From a virus, in IMG/VR virus record IMGVR_UViG_3300030107_004068, positions 1-57,712 of that record: DNA of 57,712 nt. One strand, given 5' to 3'. The notes beneath the pieces were generated by a model, which was not told the DNA's origin, did not search any database, and saw only the letters and a list, made by a program, of their open reading frames with translations. A program made the position numbers and the translations under genes. Shown one piece after another: positions 20,801 through 48,668 of this stretch; positions within the stretch are counted from its first letter, which is position 1, and every line of letters begins with the position of its first letter.

Positions 20801-23800
20801 AGTGAACTTTCCTCTAAGTCTATGGAAGAGTTTCAAGTTTCGACCAAGCTGGAAGGTTTTGGAATAGATACTTTTCTTGCCGATGAAGATGTCGGAACTC
20901 AAATTATAAAGAAAAGAAAGGCGCTTAAGGCTCGAGTCTACCGGGCAAAGAAAAAGCTGAACGAAGCTCGAGTTCAAGCGAGCAAGACAGCCAAAAAAGA
21001 CAAGCCAGAAACAGGCGAGCGCTGGACTTTAGAAGTCAGAAAGTCGAAGAAGAAAGACTATTTTGTTTTTGTAAACTCAAGCGACATGGCTCCGCTTTCG
21101 AGCATCTTTAGAAACAAAAATCTCTCTCAACTTCTTGATGAAAATGGTCTGTTTCTCAGTCGAATCATGGGCCCTAAGTGGACAAACAAGTTCTTTAGAA
21201 GTGTTTCGAACCAAGGAGATATGCCTGATGCATACGTGAAGCCTGGTGCGGCCCGAATAGCGATAGATTCTGACGGAGCTAATGCTATCGAATTGCTGAT
21301 GCGTAAGTTCTTTTTCGAAAAGGGCGGACAAATCGGTGCAATGCGTCCTCAGTTGCAAGAGTTGGGCGCACAGCTTTCTGGAATTTGGATGAGAATGAGG
21401 GGGTCTGCCGATCTTGTTGTTCCAGATATGGCTGTACGAGAGTTTTGGGACAAGACATTTAGCCCAGCAAAAATCCTTGCGAATGAAGCCATAGGAACCA
21501 CAAACAGAATCAACGGTTTGGTTCGAGTAGTTCGTATTTCTGGCGACATGGAGCAGGCAATTAAGGAAGAGCTACCTGCAAGGGCAGGTCGTAAACGTGA
21601 GTTTATTGGCGTTGAGAAAAACCCTGCAGTTGTTCGTCAAGCGCTTGGCCTGACTGACGACGTTAGAGAGGTCAACGCTGTAGAGCTTTACGCTCGTTCC
21701 GTTGGATACGCCGTTGGCGAGCATTTCAAGCGTCACGTCGGAGGCATGGAGTTTTCTAAGCTTACTGATTGGACGTTTGCTACAGCGTCTAGGGCCAGGT
21801 CTATTACTGAATCAGTAAACAAGACAATGGCATCGATTTTGGGTGTTCCGGTACTCAACAACAAAACCATTAAGGGTATTTTCGACGATAAAGAAAACGT
21901 CTTGAAGTTGAGTGACGCACAGGCATCGAGCCTTAGGGTGCATCTGAGACAGTTGGCGAATGAGCCTATTTCTGTTCGACGCCTTCCCGATGAGATTATT
22001 GATCCAAGTGCTGATCTTACGCAGATAACAAACGTTCAACTGAATAAAATCATCGAGATTATGAAGGATGTTGAGGGTGGGGCGTTTTCTAAGAGGACAC
22101 ATTACTCGGAAGCCATCTCAAGATCTCTTGGATACAGCGTTTTGAACGCGCTGAAGGCCGCGTCGAGGGACACCTTCGAAGCATCAGACTCTGGAAAGGC
22201 TCTGATGGAAAAATTCGACACATGGTTTAGCCTTGAAGACCCTTATTTGGACACCTTGGGGCCAATGCAGCGGTCTCTTCTTGATAAATGGCTAAAGAAA
22301 GTACAGGGCGTACAGAAAGATGTTCTTGAAATGATGCGAGTTGCCATCGCTGAAGATCCAGACATCGCCATTGATGCAGTTTTCGATAAGATTAGGCGAC
22401 AGTTGTTTCCTGATGTTGATCCATCTAAGGCCAAGAGGATCTTAGGATCGACTCCTCAGACGCTTATTCCAGGGAGGCGCAAGGCTTCTGATGCGAAGCA
22501 GGGCTGGTTCCAGTTCTTGTCGGAGTTTACTGCTGCAGAAGCAAAGAGAAACGCTGACGAATACGCAGCAGCAAAGCAAGACCTTGATTTGCCAGAATCA
22601 CCAGCAGTGCTTCGTGGCGAAGAAAAGATGTTTCCATCTGAGTATGAGTTTTTCGACATTAGTGGGATGTCCACAGAAGAAATTACTCAAATGATGGAAC
22701 AGGGCGGGGTATCCAAGCTCGAGTTTCTGTTGAAAAGAACATCTCTTGATGAGTTGGAAGATTTAATCAGTGACCAATCTAGGGGCGTTAACGGTCTCAC
22801 TGAAAGAGAGCGTCAAGCGTTCTCTGTATTGGGCACATACGCAAACAAAACACCAGACGAGTTGGCAAAGCTGGACAAGCTTGAGCGAGTAGAGCTTGCA
22901 GACGCCATAGAGAACGTTCGATTGAGCTTGTATGACCGTGCTCGATACATCGAGATGCGCGGTAAGAAAATTTTCTTGTCGTTGATGGGCGGTGCTGGAG
23001 AAACTCTAATTGGCAACATGGATTCAGCCCAGTTTGGTTGGTTTTACACCAAGTTCTACGAGGGCGGTAACGGCTGGATTGAAATGCTCGACTGGCTGGT
23101 CAACAAGGCTGCTAGAGAAGGCGGACTATGGGCCGAAAGAATACCTAAATACAGCCCAGCGCAAGCATTCCTAGAAATGATAGTGCGGATGCGGTCGTAT
23201 GAAATCATGGATGGCATGGCTGACGATATGATGCGTCATGGCGTGCCCGTTAAGATGCAAGATTTTGTACAGCCACGTCCACGCATTGGCCCGAAAGGCG
23301 ATGTTATTTCTATCGAGGCTGGAAACAAGTTTAATGAGCGCGTAAAGCACTACATTACCGAGATTCTTGAGTTTGGTGACATCGTTGTGCAGCGAATGCA
23401 CAAAGTCTATGACGAAGACGGAAACGTGGTTCTTGCAGACAACGGAAAGCCGCTTCTGGAGCCGGGTGGATATGAAGGATTCAGGGCACCAAAGCCAGAA
23501 TCGTGGGCACCAGGCGAATATAAAATCGGGATCAAGAGCGGTGAGAACTCACACGTACATGATCTTCAAGCATACGGTGTAGCCACAGAAATACTGGCCA
23601 GATTCGGGCATCGATTCAAGTCTAAGGACTGGGTTGAGATGACATTCCCAGATGGCAGCGTAGGATTTGTTCCAGCGCCGATGAAAAAGCACATTGAGAA
23701 GACTATTGATCGTCTTTCAAGCGTTGGCTGGGCTCGAGGCACGTTTTCAGCGCGAAGATTGACCCCCGCAAGGGTTAGGGCTCCGATGGGGATAGAGCCC

Positions 23801-25414
23801 GACTATTCAAGAGAAGTTCGCGCCAAAATGACAACGGCAAAAGCCATCGATACGATGGTGAACCTGTTTCCTGCGACATTTGCCAACATCAAGATGGGTG
23901 TCACGACTGGTATTGGTTTGCCAAACCCAGCATATTTTGTTGGCAACTTCATTGGTGGCGCGTTTCAGCTATTTACTGGCGTTGGCCCAATCGGTGTCGC
24001 TAAGACTGTGATGGATCCACGAAAGTGGAAGATGACCGCCGCTGTAATGTCCAGAATGTGGAAAGAAGGGCACTTCAAGCCTGGTAATCCCATCATTGTT
24101 GCAGCAGACGGATCAATCTACACTGCAGATCAGATTGCAGAGCTTGCCCATATTTATGGATTGAAGTCGAGCTTTATTTCTGCTGAAACACAACGGGCGA
24201 TGGCTGAAGATGTAGAAATCATGCTTAGAAAGCGTGATGCATCCTTGGTTGGCTTTTACAATCGTGGTGCTGATGGTGCTCGATGGTGGCAAAACAATCT
24301 TACAGAAACAGCCACAGCTATTGATAATTTTTATCGTGTTTCTGTTTTTGTTGAGGAGCTTGAAAAGGGTGCAAGCGCTCGCTCTGCAGCGTCTCTTGCC
24401 CGCAAGGTTGCGTTTGACTACGCAGAGTTGAGTGAGTTTGAAAAGGTTGTACTCCGTAATGTGATTCTGTTCTACAGCTACATGCGTAAGAACATGGATC
24501 TAACTATTGATACGCTTCTCACTGAGCCGTCTCGACTTCTTGGTCAACTTCGACTGATGAACGGGATGCAGCAAATAAACGTTCAAGACGACACAGAATT
24601 GGTCTTGAAGGACTACATTAAAGAGCGCCTTATTGGTGGGTTTAAAAGCTCAACAATAAATCAGCATGCAACAGAAGGTTGGATGCGAATAACGCCCCCG
24701 ATGCCAATCATGGATGCGATTAACTTGCCCATGAATATGGTTGGATGGGTTCAAGATGACCCAGAGGCGCAAAGGTATATGGTTACCAGGCTGGCTGCGC
24801 CCTGGATTCAGTATCCGTTTGTTGCGACATTGAAGGTCGATCCGTTCTATGCGAAGGGTATCGACATGTACAACCGCGTGCCGCCATGGCTTGTAGAGCT
24901 TGATAGGGTGCTTTTAGGCGGTATTTTGCACGACTTCCTTGATATTCAGAATAAGCCTAACTTTGACCCGTCAAGACGTTCGGTTGAGGGCGACTACTAC
25001 GAAGGCTGGTATCACGCGAATAATGGTGTGAACTGGTGGGTATATCGCAATTTGCTCCAAATTCCTGGGGCTGGCCGATCTATTGATACGATCACTTACA
25101 TGGATCGCGCAAACCTTCAGGCTATTGAAGGCGGACTGGCGCTGGCTAGGCTGCTCAGGAAGGGCGCAGAAACCGTTGGTCTCGCTGAAGAGCTTGAAGA
25201 TCCTTACGTGGGCATGGCAAAAGACACCATGGGTCCACGACCAGGGCTAACAGCGCAAGACGAATTTGCTGGATGGCTTGGCTTCAAACCGACCGAATTG
25301 CCCACAGAAGAGGCTGCAGTTAATAAAATAATTAAAGAATGGGTTAAAGAGGCGAAGCGCCAACCCGGAATTATGCGTCAATCTGACTGGCGTAGACCTA
25401 TTAAACGCCGATAA
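17822..25414 (+). CDS. Giant internal virion (ejection) protein, 2530 aa
   Basis: The largest gene of the window, with GAGG 7 bases before ATG. The N-terminus is acidic; residues 880-1080 are strongly coiled-coil; the rest is mostly helical. Hydrophobic parts include NPAYFVGNFIGGAFQLFTGV (about residue 2040). A C-terminal signature (DNFYRVSVFVEELEKGASA..., FDYAELSEFEKVVLRNVILF) is one I know from large polyvalent phage proteins injected with DNA. I looked for lysozyme/transglycosylase motifs and for T7-type polymerase motifs and saw none that convince. Its most likely role is an ejected multidomain protein. It ends the internal-protein cluster. Confidence 0.6.
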   Translation: MAEPENMEDDAVLLESFKNFDFDEFDFSDKEELFSPESENLFSDITKEQAASIEEPMSGEMRSAGTTYTSYDVHSALVDISEQVREALKFQHPGASDDELTKMLDEKLWAVDQFPRHRSLPMPDAPSIDRFREFISDEPTWLAESPSKYMRGISEAIEAGKSDDEIESLIEKAPKSHMPDELFKVQGIAGAFRSALGPRLIKASAGSKTLKTPEMRWSQRRQSARDFDKIIKEQGKLEAMKMAWESNLAMPEEEAKEIGLISDKMLGEERESFWGRAVEDRDDEGFFIPAGLKDIPGLVKRGFTKLGVQDVFAPLFLDEEDYEQYKKEAKMLTPTEGWETVVRTVWNEKDKGKSAEEIKSDVQEQLYATFLMNSYSDLPSSVRLDPPSADILIKYAAKNPQVANDKTRPGLARLVRAANAGGATKADLQKALMSVPFGQLPIEIWRGNVKSLSGIVDKIYEGADKSIEAISESGGLEARELEKDFTDLMLTTEERDGEIYVVESGIGQLLRMVGMATETVAEADISIPGLEWAAITPASRDFYYAWGIRDANTSYLARILANTSLGEVGFSRHLTDEALARGYDQADPIYRMYAYLGLGLDFLVPWEKYHVSAAIRPVRAVHRGYKANKLVGMPGFRAQAFLAGMSPTVYSYINKSSERVSKSSYSLQQRLGKSPDISDIKEALAKTGDDILTYNERWLASKLVEKMEGKKPLSYDKAIDEIAVSAKTDVFETVGDVAENIVRHIMDSPDGGSLLRNLPWQFRREIDDIILASGADPSLVREAVKAYMGVSRRTHLAALEVLMRKGDPDTQLLRASDEYQAVLKQVNDLLDEGDITADQVPVLMALLENRAYTLAADEAVTSIAEPVDFFKKVKIRRTKKAVDDAQPSKTSDLLDIEKRFKSTQKDVSDFEVAVEDFQKVVSGKDDLDKQLRSVNNKIDKLTKKILGDDYVELEKGLTLDLDDIEADNAQRLRASQVGTEKQKKDLSALLEKQSELSSKSMEEFQVSTKLEGFGIDTFLADEDVGTQIIKKRKALKARVYRAKKKLNEARVQASKTAKKDKPETGERWTLEVRKSKKKDYFVFVNSSDMAPLSSIFRNKNLSQLLDENGLFLSRIMGPKWTNKFFRSVSNQGDMPDAYVKPGAARIAIDSDGANAIELLMRKFFFEKGGQIGAMRPQLQELGAQLSGIWMRMRGSADLVVPDMAVREFWDKTFSPAKILANEAIGTTNRINGLVRVVRISGDMEQAIKEELPARAGRKREFIGVEKNPAVVRQALGLTDDVREVNAVELYARSVGYAVGEHFKRHVGGMEFSKLTDWTFATASRARSITESVNKTMASILGVPVLNNKTIKGIFDDKENVLKLSDAQASSLRVHLRQLANEPISVRRLPDEIIDPSADLTQITNVQLNKIIEIMKDVEGGAFSKRTHYSEAISRSLGYSVLNALKAASRDTFEASDSGKALMEKFDTWFSLEDPYLDTLGPMQRSLLDKWLKKVQGVQKDVLEMMRVAIAEDPDIAIDAVFDKIRRQLFPDVDPSKAKRILGSTPQTLIPGRRKASDAKQGWFQFLSEFTAAEAKRNADEYAAAKQDLDLPESPAVLRGEEKMFPSEYEFFDISGMSTEEITQMMEQGGVSKLEFLLKRTSLDELEDLISDQSRGVNGLTERERQAFSVLGTYANKTPDELAKLDKLERVELADAIENVRLSLYDRARYIEMRGKKIFLSLMGGAGETLIGNMDSAQFGWFYTKFYEGGNGWIEMLDWLVNKAAREGGLWAERIPKYSPAQAFLEMIVRMRSYEIMDGMADDMMRHGVPVKMQDFVQPRPRIGPKGDVISIEAGNKFNERVKHYITEILEFGDIVVQRMHKVYDEDGNVVLADNGKPLLEPGGYEGFRAPKPESWAPGEYKIGIKSGENSHVHDLQAYGVATEILARFGHRFKSKDWVEMTFPDGSVGFVPAPMKKHIEKTIDRLSSVGWARGTFSARRLTPARVRAPMGIEPDYSREVRAKMTTAKAIDTMVNLFPATFANIKMGVTTGIGLPNPAYFVGNFIGGAFQLFTGVGPIGVAKTVMDPRKWKMTAAVMSRMWKEGHFKPGNPIIVAADGSIYTADQIAELAHIYGLKSSFISAETQRAMAEDVEIMLRKRDASLVGFYNRGADGARWWQNNLTETATAIDNFYRVSVFVEELEKGASARSAASLARKVAFDYAELSEFEKVVLRNVILFYSYMRKNMDLTIDTLLTEPSRLLGQLRLMNGMQQINVQDDTELVLKDYIKERLIGGFKSSTINQHATEGWMRITPPMPIMDAINLPMNMVGWVQDDPEAQRYMVTRLAAPWIQYPFVATLKVDPFYAKGIDMYNRVPPWLVELDRVLLGGILHDFLDIQNKPNFDPSRRSVEGDYYEGWYHANNGVNWWVYRNLLQIPGAGRSIDTITYMDRANLQAIEGGLALARLLRKGAETVGLAEELEDPYVGMAKDTMGPRPGLTAQDEFAGWLGFKPTELPTEEAAVNKIIKEWVKEAKRQPGIMRQSDWRRPIKRR

Positions 25415-30592: not shown

Positions 30593-30970
30593 ATGGCACT
30601 TTCATCAGCGACATTCGATAGCACAGTACTATCGTACAAAATTGTTAAGCAGACGATTACTAACAATACTGCAAATATTGATGTCACTGCTGGGGCTGGC
30701 AAGCTGTATGAAATCATCTTGGCAAATGGATCTTCATCTAATGCCTACTTTAAAGCAGTGATTTCAGAAAATGAAGTCACTGTTGGAAATACAATTCCGC
30801 AACTAATGATTCGAGTAAATGCAGCAGAGACGAAGCGTTGGACCATCCCTGGCGGGCTAACGTTTACTAAGTTGAGCTTTTGGGCGGTTACTGGTCCTGC
30901 TGACAACAACACTACTTCGCCAACGCTAAACAGCGGAAACGGGCTAGTGACAACTATTGTCGCCACATAA
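30593..30970 (+). CDS. Type A small virion protein (pair 1)
   Basis: A 125-residue beta-rich protein. It shares with the genes at 32127 and 42690 the plan MA...F....LSYKI or VSYKI, then GKLYEI/GKLYSI, N.AYFK/AYLK, IPGGL.FT.LSF and a C-terminal T-rich strand. I call this family type A. In each case a type B gene follows within 12 bp. Function unknown; small homotrimeric head- or tail-surface proteins have this size and strand pattern. Confidence 0.6.
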   Translation: MALSSATFDSTVLSYKIVKQTITNNTANIDVTAGAGKLYEIILANGSSSNAYFKAVISENEVTVGNTIPQLMIRVNAAETKRWTIPGGLTFTKLSFWAVTGPADNNTTSPTLNSGNGLVTTIVAT

Positions 30971-32126: not shown

Positions 32127-32486
32127 ATGGCGTTTAAGGCTACCGGGTTTCATGACGCAGTCTCGTACAAAATTGTACATGAGTCTGGTGTCGTTAATGC
32201 TATGCATCAAAACGTCACTACGTCTAGCGGTAAGCTTTATTCTATTCTGGCTGTAAACTCAGGTAAGAATATCGCTTATTTGAAGATATTCGATACACCT
32301 AGCGCAACAATCGCTTCTTCACAGCCAATCATTATTTTGAGGATTGCTGCACAATCTACTGAAATTTATGAGATCCCAGGCGGTTTAGATTTTACAAATT
32401 TAAGCTTTTGCGCTACCCAAAATCAAAACCCTTTAGACAATACATCTGCAGTGACAACTTTAGACGTAAAGTTAGTTTGTAGTTGA
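32127..32486 (+). CDS. Type A small virion protein (pair 2)
   Basis: A 119-residue protein whose ATG directly follows the previous TAG. It matches type A copy 1 in VSYKIVHES, SGKLYSILAVNSG, YLKIF and IPGGLDFTNLSF. The high conservation of these phrases against variable strand ends suggests a common fold with different surfaces. A type B gene follows after 8 bp. Confidence 0.6.
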   Translation: MAFKATGFHDAVSYKIVHESGVVNAMHQNVTTSSGKLYSILAVNSGKNIAYLKIFDTPSATIASSQPIIILRIAAQSTEIYEIPGGLDFTNLSFCATQNQNPLDNTSAVTTLDVKLVCS

Positions 32487-32891: not shown

Positions 32892-33134
32892 ATGACTGAC
32901 ATTATTGGCATGGTTGCAACGCTGGTTTTTGGACTGTTTGCTTTTTTTGTTGGTAAAAAGGTGTCTAAGAAGGGTAAAAAGCAGGCAAGTCCGCCAGAAA
33001 ACAAGGCCGCAAATGTTGCTATAGACAACGTTCAAGAAAAACTCAAAGAAGAACTAGATCGAATCAAATCAGCCACTACAGGTGATTCTCCTGCTGATGA
33101 TCTTGCTGATCTTGGTAACTCGAGACGACGATGA
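32892..33134 (+). CDS. Small membrane protein with charged tail
   Basis: An 80-residue protein starting at ATG 32892, 8 bp after the previous stop. Residues 3-24 form a transmembrane helix (IIGMVATLVFGLFAFFVGKK), then a very basic patch and a charged helical tail. The N-in/C-out or reverse topology is not clear. Single-pass proteins like this beside a peptidoglycan enzyme are often spanin or holin-related. Confidence 0.5.
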   Translation: MTDIIGMVATLVFGLFAFFVGKKVSKKGKKQASPPENKAANVAIDNVQEKLKEELDRIKSATTGDSPADDLADLGNSRRR

Positions 33135-33577
33135 TGACGGGGCTCCTCCTTTTCCTTGGTTTGGCCCATGCATCAGACCCTATTGAGCGACCGGAGGCGC
33201 CGGATCCTGTAGAGAACGAGTGCTTAAAGGTTATGCCTATTACGTACCATAAGACTTTACCTGCGATGTTGGCAGATGAGTCTGGAGTTGCCAGATGCTC
33301 TTCTGTAGCCGTACCGTTGTCGCAGTTCTCGGATTTGTTGCAAACTGAGAGGTGGGGCCTTGCAGTCGAGTCACAGTACAAAATTCAGACTTCGAAGCTG
33401 GAAATGGAACGAGATTGGTACAAGCAACAGTTAGATGAGGCGTTAAAGCCTAAACCGTGGCTTGAAAGGCCTGGAACTCAGCGTTGGCTTGGTAGAATAG
33501 AAACGATAGTTATCGTTGGCATTGTCACTGCCGGGTTAGGGGCTACATATCACTACACATCGGGAGCAGGAAAATGA
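33131..33577 (+). CDS. Secreted/anchored lysis-cluster protein
   Basis: A 148-residue protein. ATGATG at 33131 overlaps the previous TGA. Residues 1-15 look like a signal peptide (MMTGLLLFLGLAHA, cleavage after AHA). Two cysteines lie in the periplasmic part, then a charged helix (KLEMERDWYKQQLDEALK) and a C-terminal membrane helix (IVIVGIVTAGLGATYHY). A protein tethered at its C-terminus with a coiled segment is reminiscent of spanins, but the order is unusual. Membership of the lysis cluster is inferred. Confidence 0.45.
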   Translation: MMTGLLLFLGLAHASDPIERPEAPDPVENECLKVMPITYHKTLPAMLADESGVARCSSVAVPLSQFSDLLQTERWGLAVESQYKIQTSKLEMERDWYKQQLDEALKPKPWLERPGTQRWLGRIETIVIVGIVTAGLGATYHYTSGAGK

Positions 33578-33861
33578 ATATTAAAGATATAGCCATTCCC
33601 TGCAGTACTATTTTGTTTGCTGCTGGCGCTGCCTTTGCTTCATTTGAGTCTGCTGCACAAGAAACAGAAGAGCTTGCAAGAAGGGTTACAGTTATTGAAT
33701 CTAAAGAAGGCAAGCAGGAAGTTGTTGACCTTAAGATTGAAGGCGTAGAAAAACGCCTCGATAAGATGGAAGAACTCATGGGCAAAATGCTCGAGGTTCA
33801 ACAACAGCAAGCAATTAACCAAGCCAAGATTTGCGCGGCTACTAACGCGAGTTGTAACTAA
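33574..33861 (+). CDS. N-anchored coiled-coil protein, spanin-like
   Basis: A 95-residue protein overlapping the previous stop (ATGA). An N-terminal hydrophobic segment (IAIPCSTILFAAGAAFASF) is followed by a coiled coil (ETEELARRVTVIES... VEKRLDKMEELMGKMLEVQQ). Two cysteines end the protein (KICAATNASCN). This plan matches an i-spanin or a small membrane-tethered coiled-coil protein. It directly precedes the putative endolysin with a one-base overlap. Confidence 0.45.
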   Translation: MNIKDIAIPCSTILFAAGAAFASFESAAQETEELARRVTVIESKEGKQEVVDLKIEGVEKRLDKMEELMGKMLEVQQQQAINQAKICAATNASCN

Positions 33862-34436
33862 TGAGACCACTTATTCTTGATTATGTTGATTCGCTCGGTC
33901 ACGCTGTATTTGAGAGCGGTGAGTACAACCTAAACATCATTGGTATCCGTAGTAAGGATCACCAGGCAAATAGTTTTGATGATCGTATCTGCGTAGTGTT
34001 TAGGGATGAGAGTGGATGGATAGTCCGCACCTGGGAATGCACTACAGAGCCCGGTCGATACTGGCTCGAAAATCCCAGCAATGTCAATGGAACTGCTATT
34101 CTTGTACCTGGGCAGTATCGGTCTGTTTGGAAGATCGACAAGCACCAAGGACGATACGATGCGCTCTGTCAGAGGAACGGTACGGTCAAAGTTTATCGGG
34201 ACGACAATAAAGACGACGTTATTGATCTTGATGTGGACTCAATTACTGAAGGGATGTATGGCATCAACATTCACAAGGCGGGGTCAGCATCGACGCAAGT
34301 AAACAAGTGGTCTGCCGGGTGTCAGGTGTTTAGCCATAGCGCTGACTTTGAAGAGTTCATGAGCATCTGCTACGCAGCAAAGGAGAAGTGGGGTAACAGC
34401 TTTACGTATACGCTGATCGACGAACCGGAGTTCTAA
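33861..34436 (+). CDS. YkuD-like cysteine peptidoglycan enzyme, probable endolysin
   Basis: A 191-residue protein without a signal peptide. The motif GINIHKAG (His138) ... VNKWSAGCQVF (Cys154) resembles the His/Cys centre of L,D-transpeptidase-fold (YkuD-like) proteins, where the classical form is H...[ST]HGC. Similar short proteins with the WSAGCQVF signature occur in phages, often near holin-like genes. It would act on peptidoglycan cross-links at lysis. The neighbours are small membrane proteins, supporting a lysis role. The change from HGC to AGC makes the chemistry uncertain. Confidence 0.55.
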   Translation: MRPLILDYVDSLGHAVFESGEYNLNIIGIRSKDHQANSFDDRICVVFRDESGWIVRTWECTTEPGRYWLENPSNVNGTAILVPGQYRSVWKIDKHQGRYDALCQRNGTVKVYRDDNKDDVIDLDVDSITEGMYGINIHKAGSASTQVNKWSAGCQVFSHSADFEEFMSICYAAKEKWGNSFTYTLIDEPEF

Positions 34437-34744
34437 TGGAAGCGTTGCTGGAGTCCCTTCTTGCTGATGGTCACCTTGGCGTCTTCGCGGCGTTTCTGAT
34501 TTATCAGTTTGTTACTATGCAGAAGCGTCTGGATGCTCTTGTAGAGGGTTTTCAGAAGCAACTCAAAGAGATCAACGACGAGTACGATGACCGCATTGAG
34601 AAAATGCGTGAGCGTTATGACATCGTAATCAAAGAAGCTCGGGCTGAGACTGCTGCTCAGGCTAAAGACTTTCTACAGGTTCGCAATAAAATTCAAGAAC
34701 AGATCGTGTCTAAACTCGATATTTTGACCGCACGAGGAAAGTAA
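34436..34744 (+). CDS. N-anchored coiled-coil protein, spanin- or holin-like
   Basis: A 102-residue protein overlapping the endolysin stop by one base (TAATG). Residues 12-28 are hydrophobic (HLGVFAAFLIYQFVTM); the rest is a long charged coiled coil. It resembles i-spanin/BhlA-like designs and the genes at 33574 and 45626. Being directly coupled to the endolysin makes it the best spanin or holin candidate here. Confidence 0.5.
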   Translation: MEALLESLLADGHLGVFAAFLIYQFVTMQKRLDALVEGFQKQLKEINDEYDDRIEKMRERYDIVIKEARAETAAQAKDFLQVRNKIQEQIVSKLDILTARGK

Positions 34745-34748
34745 AATC

Positions 34749-35261
34749 ATGTCATCACCAGTAGAAACGCCTGCGCCAGCCTCAACTCAAAGCCCTGATC
34801 CGGTCGATATCAAAGGCTTTGATCCAGGTCCTGAACCGCCACAACTTTCTGAAACTGTTGGTGTAGCTCCAGACATTACAGCAGCGGCCAATGCCGCTAA
34901 GTCGTTGGGCGGAGAACACGCGCCTATGGTGGCAATCGCTTTGGCGGGCATGGCCGTAGCCGGTGGTTCAAAAGCGTTCAAGCTATATCGTGATTGGGCT
35001 GAGCAGAAGCATGAGCGAGAGATGAAGAAGCTGGAGATTGAGTCCCAGAATCAGGGTCTTGAGGGACAGCAGCCCCCTCCTTGTGCAGCCAAGTGTGCGG
35101 CTATGCAAGTAGAGATCGACGGCCTTAAGTCAAAGATCGCAGGCATCGAGAAGAAAACGGCTACCATTTCTGCCGACTTCGATGGAGATGATGTTGAACG
35201 TAAGGTCAAGCGCATGAAGAAGCGCATTGATGAGTTGTTCGAGATTGTTGAGAAAAGCTAA
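34749..35261 (+). CDS. Membrane protein with Pro-rich start and coiled-coil tail
   Basis: A 170-residue protein. Residues 1-45 are Pro-rich and disordered; residues 58-78 form a membrane helix (APMVAIALAGMAVAGGSKAF); then comes a charged coiled coil with a PPPCAAKCAAM Cys pair, and a second coiled coil at the C-terminus. It is the last forward gene of the left arm. Its TAA interlocks with the stop of a reverse gene in four bases. A lysis or virion role is possible. Confidence 0.5.
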   Translation: MSSPVETPAPASTQSPDPVDIKGFDPGPEPPQLSETVGVAPDITAAANAAKSLGGEHAPMVAIALAGMAVAGGSKAFKLYRDWAEQKHEREMKKLEIESQNQGLEGQQPPPCAAKCAAMQVEIDGLKSKIAGIEKKTATISADFDGDDVERKVKRMKKRIDELFEIVEKS

Positions 35262-42689: not shown

Positions 42690-43082
42690 ATGGCGCTTAC
42701 TGTTACTGGTTTTTCGAATGCAAGCTTGAACTACAAGTTGGCTCAAGAAACTAACGCTGGCGTTACCCCGAGCGTTGATATTTTTGGTGGCGGAGGGACG
42801 CTGCATTCGATTCATTTTGCCAACCTAGACACGACCAATGCTGCATATTTGAAAATTAAACTGACTACTGGGACCGTAGCTGTAGGAACAACAAAGCCTG
42901 ACTTGATGTTTAAGCTCGCCGCAGTGGCTAGCAGTAGCTACGCAGATCGATCGGTCACACAGATAAACTTCCCAGCAGGAATCTCTTTTAGCCAGCTTAG
43001 TTTTTGGGTAACAGACCAGCCAGCATGGGATGACACTAGTGGCGATCCTGGCACTGTTACTCTTAGTTTTCTAGCCTCTTGA
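42690..43082 (+). CDS. Type A small virion protein (pair 3, in the early region)
   Basis: A 130-residue protein with GGAG 6 bases before ATG. It shares with the copies at 30593 and 32127 the start MALTVTGFSNASLNYKL, the strand AAYLKIKL, LMFKLA and the phrase FPAGISFSQLSFWV. It is one of two such genes placed among reverse-strand replication genes, with its own promoter. The protein looks structural, not regulatory. Its expression may therefore be early or independently timed. Confidence 0.6.
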   Translation: MALTVTGFSNASLNYKLAQETNAGVTPSVDIFGGGGTLHSIHFANLDTTNAAYLKIKLTTGTVAVGTTKPDLMFKLAAVASSSYADRSVTQINFPAGISFSQLSFWVTDQPAWDDTSGDPGTVTLSFLAS

Positions 43083-43089
43083 GGTAATC

Positions 43090-43458
43090 ATGGCCGTAAC
43101 GACTAAAACCGCAGTAAACCCCCTTGTCACCGATATTATTACGGATGCTGCTGCAGACCTAACTGTAGAAACCGCTGCCACATCAAATCAGAATGTGTAT
43201 GCAGTTGAGATTGTTAACTCGAACGATCAAGCAGTTTATGTCCATATGATGAACGCGGCAAGCGGTAGTACAGCCGCGACCCAACATGACCATCAGTTTT
43301 ACTGTGCTCCAAACACATCTTGTTACTACTACTTCCCACTTGGCTATAAAACAGAAGCTGGTATCCAATTCTTTTGTTCTATAACTGCAGCAGGTGGGCA
43401 AATTGCTAAAGCTCCGACGAATTCTGTCACTATAAGAATAGGATGCACTGACCGTTAA
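43090..43458 (+). CDS. Type B small virion protein (pair 3, in the early region)
   Basis: A 122-residue protein starting 8 bp after the type A gene with the signal TTGAGG. Strands VYAVEIVNS, QAVYVHMMN, HQFYCAPNTSCYYYFPLG and CSITAAGG correspond to the other B copies. The pair is preserved as a unit (A then B, 7-12 bp apart) at all three loci. The stop interlocks with the stop of a reverse gene in the sequence TTAA. Confidence 0.6.
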   Translation: MAVTTKTAVNPLVTDIITDAAADLTVETAATSNQNVYAVEIVNSNDQAVYVHMMNAASGSTAATQHDHQFYCAPNTSCYYYFPLGYKTEAGIQFFCSITAAGGQIAKAPTNSVTIRIGCTDR

Positions 43459-44067: not shown

Positions 44068-44673
44068 TTACTTCTTAGGTGGTGCCACTCCCTGGGTTGG
44101 CGCGATTGCATCATTAAGCATGTCCAGAACCTTCATGAGGCCTTCTGGGGGGCCGTCGTCGCGTGCGACTACCTTCACGTCGTACTTGGCGCTGTTGTCG
44201 CTCTTACGGCTATTCTCGCTGTGGTTAGCCACAGAGCCGTGTACGGTGACCTCGCAAGAGAAGAGACCAGCGTTGTACTTAGCCTTGGCTGTAAGGTCAG
44301 CCTTGCTGTCTGATGTAGTCTTGCTCGATGTCGATGACTTCACTTCCATAGTGAATCGAACTTCGGCTTCCTTAACTGACAAAGAAGGAGTGTTGATAAT
44401 GGCGAGCAAGGGAACCTGGAGGTCCACCTTCTCCATCTTGGTCGTTCCGTCTGCATCTTGAACTGGCTTATTAAAGCTGAAGTCCACGGTGCGAGCAGAC
44501 ATCACCTTACCAGTCGCATCGGTATCGAGGCCAACATCCTTGATGAAGTCTGATGATGCCTTAGCAAGCAGCGTCTGAGCGCTACAGGCGGCCTTGAGGG
44601 GCCCGCCGATAAGCTGGTCCATGGGAAGACCACCGAACTGGTCTGACATCTTTACAAGGCCTGAATCAGCCAT
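44068..44673 (-). CDS. DUF2589-family protein (copy 1)
   Basis: A 201-residue protein with GGAG 6 bases before ATG. The N-terminal motif FGGLPMDQLIGGPLKAACSA and the DFIKDVG segment are what I recognise as DUF2589, a bacterial and phage family of unknown function. A beta-rich domain follows (KMEKVDLQVPLLAIINTPSL, EVRFTMEVKSS) and a Ser/Thr/Lys-rich loop; the C-terminus ends PTQGVAPPKK. It is co-transcribed with a shorter relative (44683-45177). The paired arrangement suggests hetero-oligomer formation. Confidence 0.75.
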   Translation of the reverse strand: MADSGLVKMSDQFGGLPMDQLIGGPLKAACSAQTLLAKASSDFIKDVGLDTDATGKVMSARTVDFSFNKPVQDADGTTKMEKVDLQVPLLAIINTPSLSVKEAEVRFTMEVKSSTSSKTTSDSKADLTAKAKYNAGLFSCEVTVHGSVANHSENSRKSDNSAKYDVKVVARDDGPPEGLMKVLDMLNDAIAPTQGVAPPKK

Positions 44674-44682
44674 AACGAACTC

Positions 44683-45177
44683 CTAAGGTAGTAACTTGAC
44701 CAGTTGGTCATCGATTCTTGCATAACCTTCTGGGGGCTCACTGCCCTTGAAGATCAGCTTGAGTTTAGCAGCATTGCTCTCTTTTTTAAACCACGATGGC
44801 ACATTAGAGCATGGGCGGACCATTAGCTTGCCTTGCTTTTTATCCGCAGTGAGGCCCGATATCTCAACAGACATTTCAACTTCGAGCGTATCGACCCTAA
44901 GGCTTTGACCAGTCGTGAGGGATTGGAGCGGGACTGGAACTCTCTTGTGTACCAGTACTCCATCTTCCCATGTTGGGATTTCCATGACGACCATACGAGG
45001 TACATATATGGGCCTTCCATGTTCATCATTAAGTGGCTCCCCGGAATCATCAGTCTTCAACTCCCAGAACTCTTGATTCGTAATCGAGTCAAGCTCATGC
45101 CTCTCGGCAATGTCGGTGGCAGCTATAACAGCAGACTGAATAGAGTGGACAATGTCATCTAAAGAATGATCAGGCAT
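44683..45177 (-). CDS. DUF2589-like protein (copy 2)
   Basis: A 164-residue protein with GGAG 5 bases before ATG. The segment HKRVPVPLQSLTTGQSLRVD, TLEVEMSVEISGL and the C-terminal KLKLIFKGSEPPEGYARIDD align by eye with the corresponding parts of the downstream DUF2589 gene (VDLQVPLLAIINTPSLSV, EVRFTMEV, DDGPPEGLMKVLD). The N-terminal signature LIGGPLKAA is missing, replaced by a helix (LDDIVHSIQSAVIAATDIAE). It is therefore a diverged partner. Promoter: probably TTGACC (45214-45209) with TAACTT (45192-45187). Confidence 0.65.
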   Translation of the reverse strand: MPDHSLDDIVHSIQSAVIAATDIAERHELDSITNQEFWELKTDDSGEPLNDEHGRPIYVPRMVVMEIPTWEDGVLVHKRVPVPLQSLTTGQSLRVDTLEVEMSVEISGLTADKKQGKLMVRPCSNVPSWFKKESNAAKLKLIFKGSEPPEGYARIDDQLVKLLP

Positions 45178-45186
45178 GGTCTCTCC

Positions 45187-45214
45187 AAGTTATTATTGAG
45201 TAACGGTGGGTCAA
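45187..45214 (-). promoter_or_regulatory. Putative promoter of the DUF2589 pair
   Basis: Reverse strand: TTGACC (45214-45209), 16 bp, TAACTT (45192-45187). The -35 overlaps the first codon of the divergent membrane gene, so the two directions may interfere. Confidence 0.4.
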
Positions 45215-45633
45215 TGCGTCGGTTCTTCAAATCGTACAAGGACATCTTGGTCTACCATGACTACGGGCCCCTGCTGTTGTTCTGGAACATCGCAGACCTG
45301 GCCAACAATCGCGTGCTTTGGATGAGCTACGGCGAGGCTTTGGACAACGGGATGGAGTGGGCCTACCTTCAGTACGCTCTTTACTTCGTAGTGGCCTTGG
45401 GTATGCTGTTCAGCTTGCCGAACATCCGATCTTGCTCCAGGTTTGTCGGCGCGTATTTGCTGTTGTACATCTTCTCGACTACTAAGTTTGTTGTCAACGT
45501 GTTGAGCGATCCCGAGTTTGCAGTTGGCGAAGTTGGGCGAGCGCTCGTTGTGACGGGCGTCTACTTTACCTTGTGGGTTTGGATATACGTTAAAATGCGT
45601 GTGGAAGTAATGCATAAGGATCTTCGTGGATAA
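45214..45633 (+). CDS. Multi-pass membrane protein
   Basis: A 139-residue protein. ATG 45214 is preferred because the upstream extension would overlap the divergent DUF2589 gene; the Shine-Dalgarno (GGTGGG) is weak. Three to four hydrophobic helices are visible (GPLLLFWNIADLA, YALYFVVALGMLFSL, RFVGAYLLLYIFSTTKFVV, ALVVTGVYFTLWVWIYVKM). Its neighbour (45626) is a membrane-anchored coiled-coil protein. Lysis, superinfection exclusion or partnership with the DUF2589 pair are all possible. Confidence 0.55.
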   Translation: MRRFFKSYKDILVYHDYGPLLLFWNIADLANNRVLWMSYGEALDNGMEWAYLQYALYFVVALGMLFSLPNIRSCSRFVGAYLLLYIFSTTKFVVNVLSDPEFAVGEVGRALVVTGVYFTLWVWIYVKMRVEVMHKDLRG

Positions 45634-45934
45634 GCCGACCACCACCGCTGCAATCGTTGCTGCCGTTACAGGTGTGTTCAGTGCTGGTGCGTTTAAGTTC
45701 TATGAGTTTATGTTGAAGCAGAAGAGAGAAGTTCAGCAGGAAGAAAAGGCTGAACAAACTTTGTATAGGGATGACCTAATCAAACGGGTTGAAAAGCTTG
45801 AAGAAGAGCGAGATGAGCACCTAAGTCAAATCATGAAGCTGATGACTGAGGTCACAGCGCTCAAAGTTGAAGTGGACTACGTGAAGAGAGAGAACGAACT
45901 ACTCAAGATGAAGCTTGATTCGATGAGGATGTGA
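45626..45934 (+). CDS. Membrane-anchored coiled-coil protein
   Basis: A 102-residue protein starting at GTG 45626 with AAGGA 5 bases upstream and an 8-bp overlap with the previous gene. Residues 7-30 are hydrophobic (TAAIVAAVTGVFSAGAFKFY); residues 32-100 are a long coiled coil (DDLIKRVEKLEEERDEHLSQ). It resembles the genes at 33574 and 34436 in layout, so a spanin-like or scaffold role at the membrane is plausible. Its 3' end overlaps the convergent HExxH gene by 32 bp. Confidence 0.55.
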   Translation: MDKPTTTAAIVAAVTGVFSAGAFKFYEFMLKQKREVQQEEKAEQTLYRDDLIKRVEKLEEERDEHLSQIMKLMTEVTALKVEVDYVKRENELLKMKLDSMRM

Positions 45935-46295
45935 CATACTTGGCCCAAGCATACGGCTTACGTGTCGCCAGGTAGCCTCGATCTTTCTCGTGTCCGTAAG
46001 CCTCCCTCTCAAACGGTATCTCCCGATAAGCCTTATCTCCGTCCCTGTACCGGATAAGGTTGATGAGCCAGAACGTTGGATACAGCAACAGGAATCCAAT
46101 GAAGCCAAGCTCACGCCACTGCAGGTAGTGAATCGTCTCATGTCGCTTGGTTGTCTTAGTCATCTTAAATCGAGCAAAGACAAACAGCCCAAGGCTAATG
46201 GCTCCGATCTCGATAGGCGACACCCTGCTCAAGATCACTGGCACTCGACTGTTTTCTTTAAACACAGGAAAACATCTTCGATTTCTTCGTTTCAT
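45903..46295 (-). CDS. Membrane protein with an HExxH zincin-like motif
   Basis: A 130-residue protein with AGGA before ATG. One hydrophobic helix lies at 27-41, then RHETIHYLQWREL with the motif HETIH (52-56), then a second membrane helix (FIGFLLLYPTFWLINLI) and FEREAYGHEKD, whose Glu residues could complete a metal site. Similar short HExxH proteins occur in bacteria and phages without a known role. The motif directly precedes the second helix, so the site sits at the membrane surface. Protease activity is a guess. Confidence 0.6.
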   Translation of the reverse strand: MKRRNRRCFPVFKENSRVPVILSRVSPIEIGAISLGLFVFARFKMTKTTKRHETIHYLQWRELGFIGFLLLYPTFWLINLIRYRDGDKAYREIPFEREAYGHEKDRGYLATRKPYAWAKYVTSSSNQASS

Positions 46296-46515: not shown

Positions 46516-46588
46516 CTGGGGCGGCTGGACTTGAACCAACAACCTCCTGGGTAACAACCAGGCGTTCTGCCAGTTGAACTACACCCCA
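46516..46588 (-). tRNA. tRNA-Asn (GTT)
   Basis: 73 bases on the reverse strand fold as a cloverleaf: acceptor TGGGGTG with CGCCCCA, D stem GTTC/GAAC, anticodon stem CCTGG/CCAGG with loop TTGTTAC (anticodon GTT), 5-base variable loop and T stem GTTGG/CCAGC with loop TTCAAGT. The discriminator is G and CCA is not encoded. It lies between the SSB and FmdB genes and would be cut from the same transcript. Confidence 0.93.
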
Positions 46589-46596
46589 TCGGTTTC

Positions 46597-47256
46597 TTAG
46601 AAAGGGATCTCTTCGTCTGGAATACGGGCGGTCTGCTGACTTGATGCTTGAGGTCGAGACACACCATTCTCTGGCTTAGTCAAGAACTCTACCCGGTCAG
46701 AGATGATCTCTGTACTCTTTCGAGTGTTTCCGTCTTTGTCTTCATACGTGCTGGTCCTAAGCTTGCCTTCGACTGCAACCTTAGAGCCCTTGTCGAGAAA
46801 CCGCTCACAGCTTTCGGCTTGCTTGCCGAAGACAGTTACACGATGCCATTCGGTATGATCGACCCACTCGTCTCCCTTCTTCACTCGTTCATTTGTGGCA
46901 ACGCTGAAGTTGCAGATCGGAAGACCGCTCGCTGACTTTCGTAGCTCTGGCTTCTGACCCAAGTTGCCTGTAATGATTACTTTATTCACTTCACTTCTCC
47001 ATTCTGGTTTGATTAAGTCGAACGGCGATTTGCCTGCTGATGCTTTCCACATCATTTCGACGAGGTCTTCAGAGCTAATCTCAGCACTGAAAAATGTGTT
47101 GCCGCACGATAAACATTTTCTGCGTCGTACAGCAAAATATGATGTATGCCAGTCTATTTTTGGACCAACTTTTGATACCTCCCACCCATTACCTGGTGAG
47201 TGAGGGTGCCTTGTAGTTAAAACTTTTGTTCCTTTCCCGCATTTTGTACAGTTCAT
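46597..47256 (-). CDS. ssb: NrdR-like zinc ribbon in frame with single-stranded DNA-binding protein
   Basis: A 219-residue frame from ATG 47256, which overlaps the helicase stop (ATGA). Residues 1-90 hold an NrdR-like zinc ribbon (MNCTKCGKGTKVLTTR, then FAVRRRKCLSCGNTFFSAEI; Cys3, 6, 48, 51). From about residue 90 a complete SSB follows: VNKVIITGNLGQKPELRKSA, WHRVTVFGKQAE, GSKVAVEGKLRTSTYEDKDG, and the acidic tip DEEIPF. A GTG at 46989 with GGAG 7 bases upstream could start a normal 130-aa SSB, so either a fusion or two in-frame products are made. SSB protects ssDNA in replication and recombination. Confidence 0.88.
   Translation of the reverse strand: MNCTKCGKGTKVLTTRHPHSPGNGWEVSKVGPKIDWHTSYFAVRRRKCLSCGNTFFSAEISSEDLVEMMWKASAGKSPFDLIKPEWRSEVNKVIITGNLGQKPELRKSASGLPICNFSVATNERVKKGDEWVDHTEWHRVTVFGKQAESCERFLDKGSKVAVEGKLRTSTYEDKDGNTRKSTEIISDRVEFLTKPENGVSRPQASSQQTARIPDEEIPF
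46987..47000 (-). promoter_or_regulatory. Internal Shine-Dalgarno and GTG start of SSB
   Basis: GGAG (47000-46997), a 7-base spacer and GTG (46989-46987) sit exactly at the first residue of the SSB domain inside the longer frame. This is a good ribosome-binding site for a separate SSB. Confidence 0.6.
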
Positions 47257-48668
47257 CCTGGTATCTCGTTCACAGTGCATCCAAGTTTTCTGTAGAACCG
47301 CGCTCGCTTCTTGTGCTTGTAGAACAAGCCCCTGCTGTAATCGACCAAGTCCACGACTATTGGTTGCTTCTTGTTTTCTGCTGTTCGCATGATTCGACCA
47401 ATACGTTGCTGCACTCGACCCATAGCGTTCGTTGGCGTGGTCAAGATGAGAGTATCGAGCCCTGGTAGGTCTAAGCCCTCGTCTGCGATTGTGGTGGCAA
47501 AGATCACCTTCACCTCTCGAGACTCGGCAGCAGCCATAGTTTCTGCTCGCTGCTTCTTACTCATCTTTCCAACAAGAGCAGCAGAGCTAGCTCCTCGGTC
47601 TGCAACCTTCTCTGCCATATCTATGCAGTGCTGCACTCGATCTGACAAAACCAGGATCTGTCGATCGTCTTCCAGAAACCCATCGATAAGGTCGAGGATC
47701 TGATTGTTTCGGCCTTCGTCTGCACACATCTTGTTCACCAGCTTTGGCCAATCCATGTCGCCTTCTGGATACCATGATGTGATTTGAAACCTCACTTCTG
47801 GTGCGAGCACTCGACCTTCTTCGATCAGTTGCCTCGTTGTGATCCGAACCAACTCATTGCCGAAGTGCCAGTACAGTATCTTGCTGAGCCCGTCAGGCCT
47901 GTCTGGTGTTGCGGTCAGCCCCATCCGCACAGTCGCTGGCATTGCCATCATCACATGGCTGAAGCTGTTTGCTGGAATGTGGTGAGCCTCATCAACGATG
48001 CATACTCCAAACTGCTTTCCCCAGTCATGCAACTCATCCCATCGTTCTTTGGCAAGGGATTGAATCATTGCGATTACGATCTGCCCTGAGTCGTCTTTCT
48101 TTCCTCCGCCCCAGATAGTGACGTGTGGAGCTTCACCGTCCTTTGTTGTCAACTGAGCCTTGATACGATCTTCCCACTGCTTGGCAAGGTCATTGGTGTG
48201 TACCAATACGATTGTTCGTGTAGCGAACTTCGTCATGGCTCCAAGCCCTATCATTGTCTTTCCTGCGCCACATGGTGCGATTACCAACCCCTCCTGCGCC
48301 TTCACCAGTTCTTCCACGGCCTCTTGCTGGTATGGCCTGAGCTTTACCCCTTCCGCCATCTTTAGTCGGCTGTGGCTGCTATCGGTAAGCTCTGGGTACG
48401 ATGTCTTCCATGTGTACTGTAGGCTTTCTGAAAGTGTGACACCCCTGGGTATCATCAACCCGCCGCCCCACTTATGCCACAGTGGAATCGTCTTGCACGC
48501 ATACACATGTTGGTCTGGAATCTGCACCCACTTGCCCTTGTTTCTGAGAGCCATCGCTTGGTGGTACTCAGGGTTGGGGCATCGAAACTTGCTTTTAATC
48601 TTATCGATGTGTGGTGAGGCTGGAGGCAAGAACTTCGCTCCGCCAACCGCGCAGATTGACTCAATCAT
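47253..48668 (-). CDS. SF2 DNA/RNA helicase (XPB/UvsW-like)
   Basis: A 471-residue protein with AGGAG before ATG. Motifs: Q-motif region VKLRPYQQEAVEELV, Walker A APCGAGKT (131-138), Ia HTNDLAKQWEDR, DEAH (226-229), TATP (252-255), V IFATTIADEGLDLPGLDTLI and VI QQRIGRIMR. The N-terminal 100 residues (IPRGVTLSESLQYTW region) are an added domain. Such phage helicases remodel forks and recombination intermediates. It heads an operon with the SSB gene and is preceded by a TTGACA promoter. Confidence 0.9.
   Translation of the reverse strand: MIESICAVGGAKFLPPASPHIDKIKSKFRCPNPEYHQAMALRNKGKWVQIPDQHVYACKTIPLWHKWGGGLMIPRGVTLSESLQYTWKTSYPELTDSSHSRLKMAEGVKLRPYQQEAVEELVKAQEGLVIAPCGAGKTMIGLGAMTKFATRTIVLVHTNDLAKQWEDRIKAQLTTKDGEAPHVTIWGGGKKDDSGQIVIAMIQSLAKERWDELHDWGKQFGVCIVDEAHHIPANSFSHVMMAMPATVRMGLTATPDRPDGLSKILYWHFGNELVRITTRQLIEEGRVLAPEVRFQITSWYPEGDMDWPKLVNKMCADEGRNNQILDLIDGFLEDDRQILVLSDRVQHCIDMAEKVADRGASSAALVGKMSKKQRAETMAAAESREVKVIFATTIADEGLDLPGLDTLILTTPTNAMGRVQQRIGRIMRTAENKKQPIVVDLVDYSRGLFYKHKKRARFYRKLGCTVNEIPG

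What the first reader, a model, noticed from the sequence alone, without database searches (positions are those of the whole stretch)
44068..45934. DUF2589 pair back-to-back with a membrane/coiled-coil pair
Two co-transcribed DUF2589-type proteins (one lacking the LIGGPLKAA start) are divergent, by 36 bp, from a multi-pass membrane protein and an anchored coiled-coil protein; an HExxH membrane protein follows. DUF2589 has no assigned function. The four genes look like one unit with a membrane-facing and a soluble half, and could be a counter-defence, exclusion or membrane-remodelling system.
Basis: partly seen in the sequence, partly recalled or inferred. Interest (0 to 1): 0.7.

Follow-up and report, generated by a model that had tools for sequence, protein, structure and literature searches.

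The report
Paired DUF2589 genes in marine phages
A group of uncultured viruses of bacteria carries a tightly conserved pair of genes of unknown function (DUF2589) that bacteria also keep as a pair, often beside cell-wall-cutting enzymes, so the pair probably works on or at the cell envelope, although nobody has tested this.

Summary
D1 (44068-44673, -) and D2 (44683-45177, -) both match Pfam DUF2589. D2 lies 36 bp from the divergent membrane/coiled-coil pair M3-C4, and a membrane HETIH protein follows. "One four-gene unit" is only partly right. D2-D1 is one unit: 78 of 80 relative contigs, and pairs in all 12 bacterial genomes examined. M3-C4 is a second unit: C4 follows M3 in all 47 assessable contigs. 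The two stand back to back in 31 of 46 contigs with room, but M3 is missing from 10 of 19 long D1+ viral records. D1, D2 and M3 are about 90% identical between phages whose replication genes are 30-67% identical (dN/dS 0.05-0.07). In bacteria, D2-D1 is joined by a 91-aa protein and, in 18 of 43 dereplicated loci, by a signal-less peptidoglycan hydrolase from one of five unrelated families. One of these is homologous to this phage's own endolysin. Best reading: D1-D2 is a soluble two-subunit complex acting at the cell envelope with phage-type lysins; M3-C4 are optional membrane partners. Association is shown, mechanism inferred. Counter-defence or exclusion has no support. The endolysin often occurs without D1-D2, which weakens a strictly lytic role.

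The parts
44068..44673 (-). D1: DUF2589 subunit with the LPMDQLIGGPLKAA N-terminal helix, 201 aa
   Evidence: PF11655 E 1.1e-44; 179 viral contigs encode a relative; median 91% identity in 109 loci; about 50% identical to bacterial D1; dN/dS 0.048
44683..45177 (-). D2: second DUF2589 subunit, without the LIGGPL motif, 164 aa
   Evidence: PF11655 E 4.5e-15; upstream of D1 in 78 of 80 viral loci; AF2 model pLDDT 80.5: helix, beta strands, helix
45214..45633 (+). M3: small multi-pass membrane protein, 139 aa
   Evidence: 3-4 hydrophobic segments; 53 viral loci at 84-96% identity for full-length matches; no Pfam or PHROG family
45626..45934 (+). C4: N-terminally anchored coiled-coil protein, 102 aa (GTG start)
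   Evidence: one hydrophobic segment, residues 7-25; directly follows M3 in 47 of 47 loci where it could be seen; phrog_6664 E 3.3e-5, unknown function
45178..45213 (.). 36-bp divergent gap between D2 and M3
   Evidence: sequence; no sigma-70-like promoter match in the gap, and promoter-like sites in the region are no more frequent than in shuffles
45903..46295 (-). HETIH membrane protein, 130 aa; neighbour, probably not part of the module
   Evidence: phrog_15610 'protease' E 2.2e-25; in only 11 of the viral loci; relatives in 107 phage records, mostly Bacteroidota phages
33861..34436 (+). Phage endolysin (L,D-transpeptidase-like H...WSAGC motif), homologous to the lysin in bacterial DUF2589 operons
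   Evidence: phrog_3000 9e-39 and phrog_33083 endolysin 1.7e-17; phmmer 1.8e-51 to 1.8e-59 to L136, L146, L166; invariant H138, S151, G153, C154
33131..35261 (+). Rest of the lysis-type cassette: small TM/coiled-coil proteins around the endolysin (33131-33577, 33574-33861, 34436-34744, 34749-35261)
   Evidence: in most relatives this cassette lies 0.8-2.5 kb from D1 and converges on it

Best explanation
D1 and D2 are the two subunits of one soluble complex (a long N-terminal amphipathic helix, beta strands, a short C-terminal helix). Phages of this group probably took the gene pair from bacteria, where it forms a chromosomal operon D2-D1-S91, often with a phage-type peptidoglycan hydrolase that lacks a signal peptide. 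The complex most likely binds the inner face of the membrane and/or the lysin and governs how a cytosolic lysin reaches or acts on the cell wall. In the phage it would adjust the envelope or lysis step together with the phage's own endolysin; M3 (multi-pass) and C4 (anchored coiled coil) would be optional membrane partners. Shown: genes, pairing, conservation, neighbourhoods, homology of the phage endolysin to lysins in bacterial DUF2589 operons. Inferred: physical complex, membrane contact, control of a lysin, role of M3-C4.
For: Pairing: D2 next to D1 in 78 of 80 viral loci and a D2 in 76 of 80 bacterial loci; 12 of 12 whole bacterial genomes have DUF2589 only as neighbours (2, 3 or 4 copies). 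Bacterial operon: S91 in 74 of 80 loci. The commonest Pfam families among 120 nearby ORFs were GH108 and PG_binding_3, with GH19, N-acetylmuramidase, pesticin-type lysozyme and Amidase_2 also present; none of these matched two or more of 117 far ORFs. Direct test: 18 of 43 dereplicated loci have such an enzyme within 2.8 kb of D1, one beyond 4 kb (after removing one overlap artefact). The GH108, GH19, pesticin-type, muramidase and phage-type lysins have no hydrophobic N-terminus. This phage's endolysin is homologous to the lysin lying 24-37 bp from D1 in two Bacteroidota loci and 1 kb away in a third. In most relatives D2-D1 abuts the lysis cassette; the endolysin is present in 18 of 19 records chosen for D1. 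Strong purifying selection.
Against: The endolysin also occurs in phages with no D1 found: 12 of 15 long records checked lack it, so D1-D2 is not needed for lysis. 25 of 43 bacterial loci show none of the searched lysins within 2.8 kb. D2-D1 runs with replication genes, not with late genes. Archaeoglobus fulgidus, an archaeon without murein, has DUF2589-related genes AF0414-AF0417 (PMC3949148). No structural relative was found that tells function. Synteny with the lysis cassette may simply be shared descent of related phages. D1/D2 have no TM segment, and membrane contact rests on amphipathic helices only.
Confidence: 0.4

Rival explanations
1. Decoy or mimic: the phage pair is a captured host gene pair without the third bacterial component S91, and works by joining, jamming or re-targeting the host's own DUF2589 machine.
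For: Phage D1 forms one clade (89/99) beside marine Gammaproteobacteria (80/91); S91 is absent from all viral loci searched.
Against: DUF2589 is patchy in bacteria, 3 of 369 genomes in one class and 28 of 395 in one phylum, so few hosts would have the target; the very strong conservation of both subunits and of M3-C4 suggests a working machine rather than a poison.
Confidence: 0.15
2. Superinfection exclusion or counter-defence cassette: M3-C4 alter the membrane and D1-D2 assist.
For: Membrane plus soluble proteins, accessory gene insertions between D2 and D1 in 14 of 78 contigs, M3-C4 not universal.
Against: No PADLOC match for D1, D2 or M3. Genes in an arms race usually vary quickly; these are the most conserved genes in the region.
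Confidence: 0.12
3. Virion or assembly proteins: D1-D2 form a scaffold, coat or cargo-loading complex of the particle.
For: Two linked beta-rich proteins under strong purifying selection; small unrelated genes are inserted between D2 and D1, as if a cargo changed.
Against: The genes run with the replication genes, match no PHROGs structural family, and have chromosomal bacterial relatives with no phage structural genes among the common neighbours.
Confidence: 0.1
4. General cytosolic chaperone, or lipid- or stress-related complex with no special link to the cell wall; the lysin neighbours reflect prophage-derived gene traffic.
For: Found in bacteria of many phyla and in an archaeon; many loci have no recognised lysin; divergent Bacteroidota loci have other partners.
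Against: Five unrelated lysin families beside the same pair, almost always on the same strand, are hard to explain by random traffic.
Confidence: 0.2

Closest known systems
DUF2589 family (PF11655)
   Same: Both D1 and D2 score over the Pfam cut-off
   Different: The family has no assigned function. One paper in the held library mentions it, and only as genes up-regulated in A. fulgidus. Its two-subunit make-up and lysin neighbours are not described there
Type 10 secretion / holin-endolysin export (such as TtsA, a typhoid toxin secretion muramidase without a signal peptide; PMC9527704)
   Same: Bacterial DUF2589 operons carry phage-type lysins without a signal peptide, and a few carry effector-like genes (colicin-type DNase, Peptidase_C58)
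   Different: No enrichment of holin-like small TM proteins (11 of 141 near ORFs, 22 of 244 far); D1, D2 and S91 are not known parts of such systems
Classical phage lysis cassette (holin, endolysin, spanins)
   Same: The phage has an endolysin with small TM and coiled-coil proteins at 33131-35261; C4 looks like such a protein in layout
   Different: In this window D1-D2-M3-C4 lie about 9-11 kb away in the replication half; profile comparison of C4 with the cassette proteins is weak (hhalign probability 22% at best)
Zincin-type 'protease' of crAss-like and other Bacteroidota phages (phrog_15610)
   Same: HETIH membrane protein 45903-46295 matches it
   Different: Not linked to DUF2589 in most relatives

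Membership tests
DUF2589 (PF11655) | Score above Pfam's curated cut-off over the whole domain | tested here: met
   D1 152.9 bits and D2 56.8 bits against 23
DUF2589 (PF11655) | LPM..LIGGPL.AA N-terminal motif | tested here: inconclusive
   Present in D1 and nearly invariant in D1-type proteins; absent from D2 and D2-type proteins, which still score as DUF2589. It marks the D1 subunit rather than the family
Type 10 secretion / holin-endolysin export | Cytosolic lysin without signal peptide | tested here: met
   GH108, GH19, pesticin-type, muramidase, GH24 and phage-type lysins in bacterial DUF2589 loci have no hydrophobic N-terminus; GH19_L100 showed 1.7 only because of an upstream start; the MltF-type protein on a Vibrio plasmid does have one
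Type 10 secretion / holin-endolysin export | Linked holin | tested here: inconclusive
   No enrichment of small 1-3 TM ORFs; crude hydropathy test, so divergent holins cannot be excluded
Type 10 secretion / holin-endolysin export | Export of a defined cargo | not testable with these tools
   Needs secretion assays
Phage lysis cassette (for M3-C4) | Adjacent to the endolysin and on the late strand | tested here: inconclusive
   Late-strand orientation; within a few kb of the cassette in many relatives, but far from it in the window and in others
Known anti-phage defence systems (PADLOC) | Match to a defence protein model | tested here: inconclusive
   D1, D2, M3 and the HETIH protein match nothing; C4 has two weak coiled-coil-type matches. 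Counter-defence proteins are not covered by this library
L,D-transpeptidase-like lysin (endolysin 33861-34436) | Conserved His and S/T-x-G-C motif | tested here: met
   H138 and WSAGC invariant in 11 sequences; but no Pfam YkuD hit and no PDB relative, so fold membership is inferred

The most novel reading that the evidence does not exclude
D1-D2 (with S91 in bacteria) is a previously undescribed, holin-independent apparatus that holds and delivers phage-type lysins, and some toxins, that lack signal peptides to the cell wall; a large group of uncultured phages has taken it over, with M3-C4 as its membrane docking part.
Probability: 0.17. Interest if true: 0.85.

Novelty: new variant of a known kind. 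Interest (0 to 1): 0.58.

Why it matters
DUF2589 is found from Archaea to Bacteroidota with no function. Showing that it is a two-subunit module, kept by phages as their most conserved genes in this region and placed beside unrelated cell-wall enzymes in bacteria, turns it into a testable question: does it handle lysins at the envelope? If so, it would be a new way of moving or controlling cell-wall enzymes, relevant to lysis timing, toxin release and bacterial competition.

Tried and rejected
Fold look-up: Foldseek and VIA-align against PDB gave nothing usable for D1 (pLDDT 60) or D2 (pLDDT 80.5); one unnamed viral prediction, A0A516L4Y6, resembles D2 (E 2e-7, TM 0.55). Sequence search of PDB with D1 and with both profiles: nothing. 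C4 as a relative of the lysis-cassette coiled-coil proteins: hhalign probability 3-22%, not accepted. S91 in phages, and M3/C4 in bacterial loci: none. A shared C-terminal tail (DxTLMENMR) on unrelated genes inserted between D2 and D1 looked like an export tag, but the DNA is almost identical up to the D1 ribosome-binding site in four of them, so a recombination junction is the simpler reading. Promoters in the 36-bp gap: none found. The GH19b matches overlapping D1 are overlap artefacts and were discarded. For the tally, three GH108 genes were put in by hand in place of longer shadow ORFs, so the independent count is; that call in turn searched only for families first seen near D1. D1 in catalogued phages: one hit in 50,697 records, a 4-kb uncultured scaffold.

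Full report
WHAT IS THERE. The window is a 57,712-base viral record with structural genes on the + strand up to about 35 kb and replication genes mainly on the - strand after that. The finding's genes are real and correctly placed: D1 44068-44673 (-) and D2 44683-45177 (-) are both DUF2589 by Pfam (1.1e-44 and 4.5e-15, cut-off 23 bits), 9 bp apart. M3 45214-45633 (+) starts 36 bp from D2. C4 45626-45934 (+) overlaps the end of M3. The HETIH protein 45903-46295 (-) converges on C4. D1 and D2 have no hydrophobic segment; M3 has 3-4, C4 one, the HETIH protein two.

HOW CONSERVED. D1 has relatives in at least 179 viral contigs of the searched collection, and D2 is beside it in 78 of the best 80. 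Median identity to the window is 91% for D1, 88% for D2, 88% for M3, 82% for C4 and 85% for the endolysin, against 49% for the helicase, 30% for RecT and 67% for the primase-type protein in the same loci. Synonymous sites are close to saturation (median pS 0.68, 0.62, 0.54 for D1, D2, M3) while dN/dS is 0.048, 0.057 and 0.073. This is strong purifying selection; the slightly lower pS than in neighbouring genes also allows some exchange between phages. Catalogued phages lack the pair: one hit for D1 in 50,697 phage records, a short uncultured scaffold, and none for D2 or M3.

ONE UNIT OR TWO. C4 follows M3 in 47 of 47 loci where it could be seen. D2 is divergent and within 0.5 kb of M3 in 31 of 46 loci with room; in the other 15, M3-C4 sits elsewhere, mostly between the primase and helicase genes. 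Of 19 long D1-positive records, 9 have M3 and 18 have the endolysin. In 14 of 78 contigs one unrelated small gene is inserted exactly between D2 and D1. So there are two conserved gene pairs that are often neighbours. The HETIH gene is a visitor: few relatives have it here, and its family is common in Bacteroidota phages.

POSITION IN RELATED PHAGES. In most relatives D2-D1 closes the replication operon and faces the lysis cassette (endolysin plus small TM/coiled-coil proteins), 0.8-2.5 kb away, with M3-C4 on the late strand. In the window the same cassette lies at 33131-35261, about 9 kb from D1. The endolysin has an invariant His and a WSAGC motif, like L,D-transpeptidase-type enzymes; PHROGs calls a relative an endolysin, Pfam does not recognise it. 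The link is not strict: of 15 long endolysin-bearing records checked because no D1 was seen in the flanks, 12 have no D1 anywhere in the record.

BACTERIAL RELATIVES. D1 is about 50% identical to bacterial DUF2589 proteins of many phyla. Twelve whole genomes hold 2 to 4 DUF2589 genes each, always as neighbours, one strong D1-type and one weaker D2-type in each pair, with a third copy in the actinomycete. An HMM search in genomes drawn evenly gave 3 of 369 (all with two copies) in one class and 28 of 395 in one phylum, where divergent partner genes that fail the Pfam model often stand beside the single hit. In the 80 best loci the order is usually D2-D1-S91, with S91 a 91-aa protein without family (74 of 80). 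Around it lie lysins of unrelated families: GH108, GH19, N-acetylmuramidase, pesticin-type lysozyme, and in Flavobacteria a homologue of this phage's endolysin 24-37 bp upstream of D1 in two loci. After dereplication 18 of 43 loci have one of these within 2.8 kb and one has one beyond 4 kb (the script printed 19, of which L160 is an overlap artefact). In 117 far ORFs no such family reached two members (only the 25 commonest families are listed). These lysins lack hydrophobic N-termini. A few loci also carry effector-like genes: a colicin-type DNase (L090) and a Peptidase_C58 plus a jacalin lectin (L146); on Vibrio plasmids the pair lies near large toxin-type genes. No holin-like enrichment was seen.

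ORIGIN. In a maximum-likelihood tree the phage D1 proteins are one clade (89/99) beside D1 of Vibrio, Agarivorans, Saccharospirillaceae and Shewanella (80/91), which fits one capture from marine Gammaproteobacteria; the program's long-branch warning applies. The endolysin and the HETIH protein instead point mostly to Bacteroidota phages, so the host stays open. 'Marine' for the phages is an inference from these relatives, not from sample records.

STRUCTURE. D2 (mean pLDDT 80.5) is a long helix, beta strands and a short C-terminal helix; D1 has the same order of elements at low confidence (60.4), its conserved RKSDNSAKY region being poorly resolved. No PDB relative. A low-confidence single-chain model would be expected of an obligate partner, but that is inference.

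MECHANISM. Most likely D1 and D2 form a soluble complex that acts at the membrane or envelope with a phage-type lysin; S91 is the third part in bacteria and M3-C4 are optional membrane parts in the phage. Shown: pairing, selection, neighbourhoods, lysin homology. Inferred: complex, membrane contact, effect on lysin. Main counter-evidence: D1-D2 is dispensable in endolysin-bearing phages, more than half of the bacterial loci show no known lysin, the genes travel with replication genes, and the archaeon A. fulgidus, which has no murein (general knowledge), has DUF2589-related genes (PMC3949148).

COMPARISON. It resembles type 10 secretion (lysin without signal peptide, genetic link to cargo; PMC9527704) in one feature, but a holin was not found, so it is not filed there. 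It belongs to DUF2589 by the Pfam test. No paper in the held library describes the pair or its lysin link; subscription journals are not covered.

VERDICT. A real, strongly conserved and, as far as the held literature shows, undescribed module; function open.

Noticed in passing
L012, L043, L046, L025, L036, L067 (between D2 and D1) and L257:12549-13085: Unrelated small genes inserted between D2 and D1 share a C-terminal DxTLMENMR-like tail; in four of them the DNA is almost identical up to the D1 ribosome-binding site, suggesting a recombination junction.
   Followed up: partly
window 17822-25414: Single ORF of 2530 aa with no Pfam match, in the structural half of the genome.
   Followed up: no
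window 30593-30970, 32127-32486, 42690-43082, 43090-43458: A family of small (119-130 aa) proteins that seem to be paralogues: in relatives several of them match the same places. No family assigned.
   Followed up: no
window 46597-47280: ORF with an N-terminal zinc-ribbon-like stretch (CTKC...CLSC) in frame with a single-stranded-DNA-binding-like protein; looks like a fusion (by eye).
   Followed up: no
window 46516-46588: tRNA-Asn (GTT) gene on the - strand inside the replication region.
   Followed up: no
L084, L085 (Vibrio plasmids): D2-D1-S91 lies near genes annotated as large toxin-type proteins, an M91-type peptidase and transglycosylase-like proteins.
   Followed up: partly
window 33861-34436 and 45903-46295: The endolysin and the HETIH protein both have relatives in crAss-like and other Bacteroidota phages, while D1 sides with marine Gammaproteobacteria; mixed ancestry or uncertain host.
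   Followed up: partly
L110:10399-11397, L136:10720-11631 and 14 other bacterial loci: A conserved membrane protein (c13, about 300 aa) without Pfam family near the DUF2589 pair in Xanthomonas, Methylotenera and Flavobacteria.
   Followed up: partly
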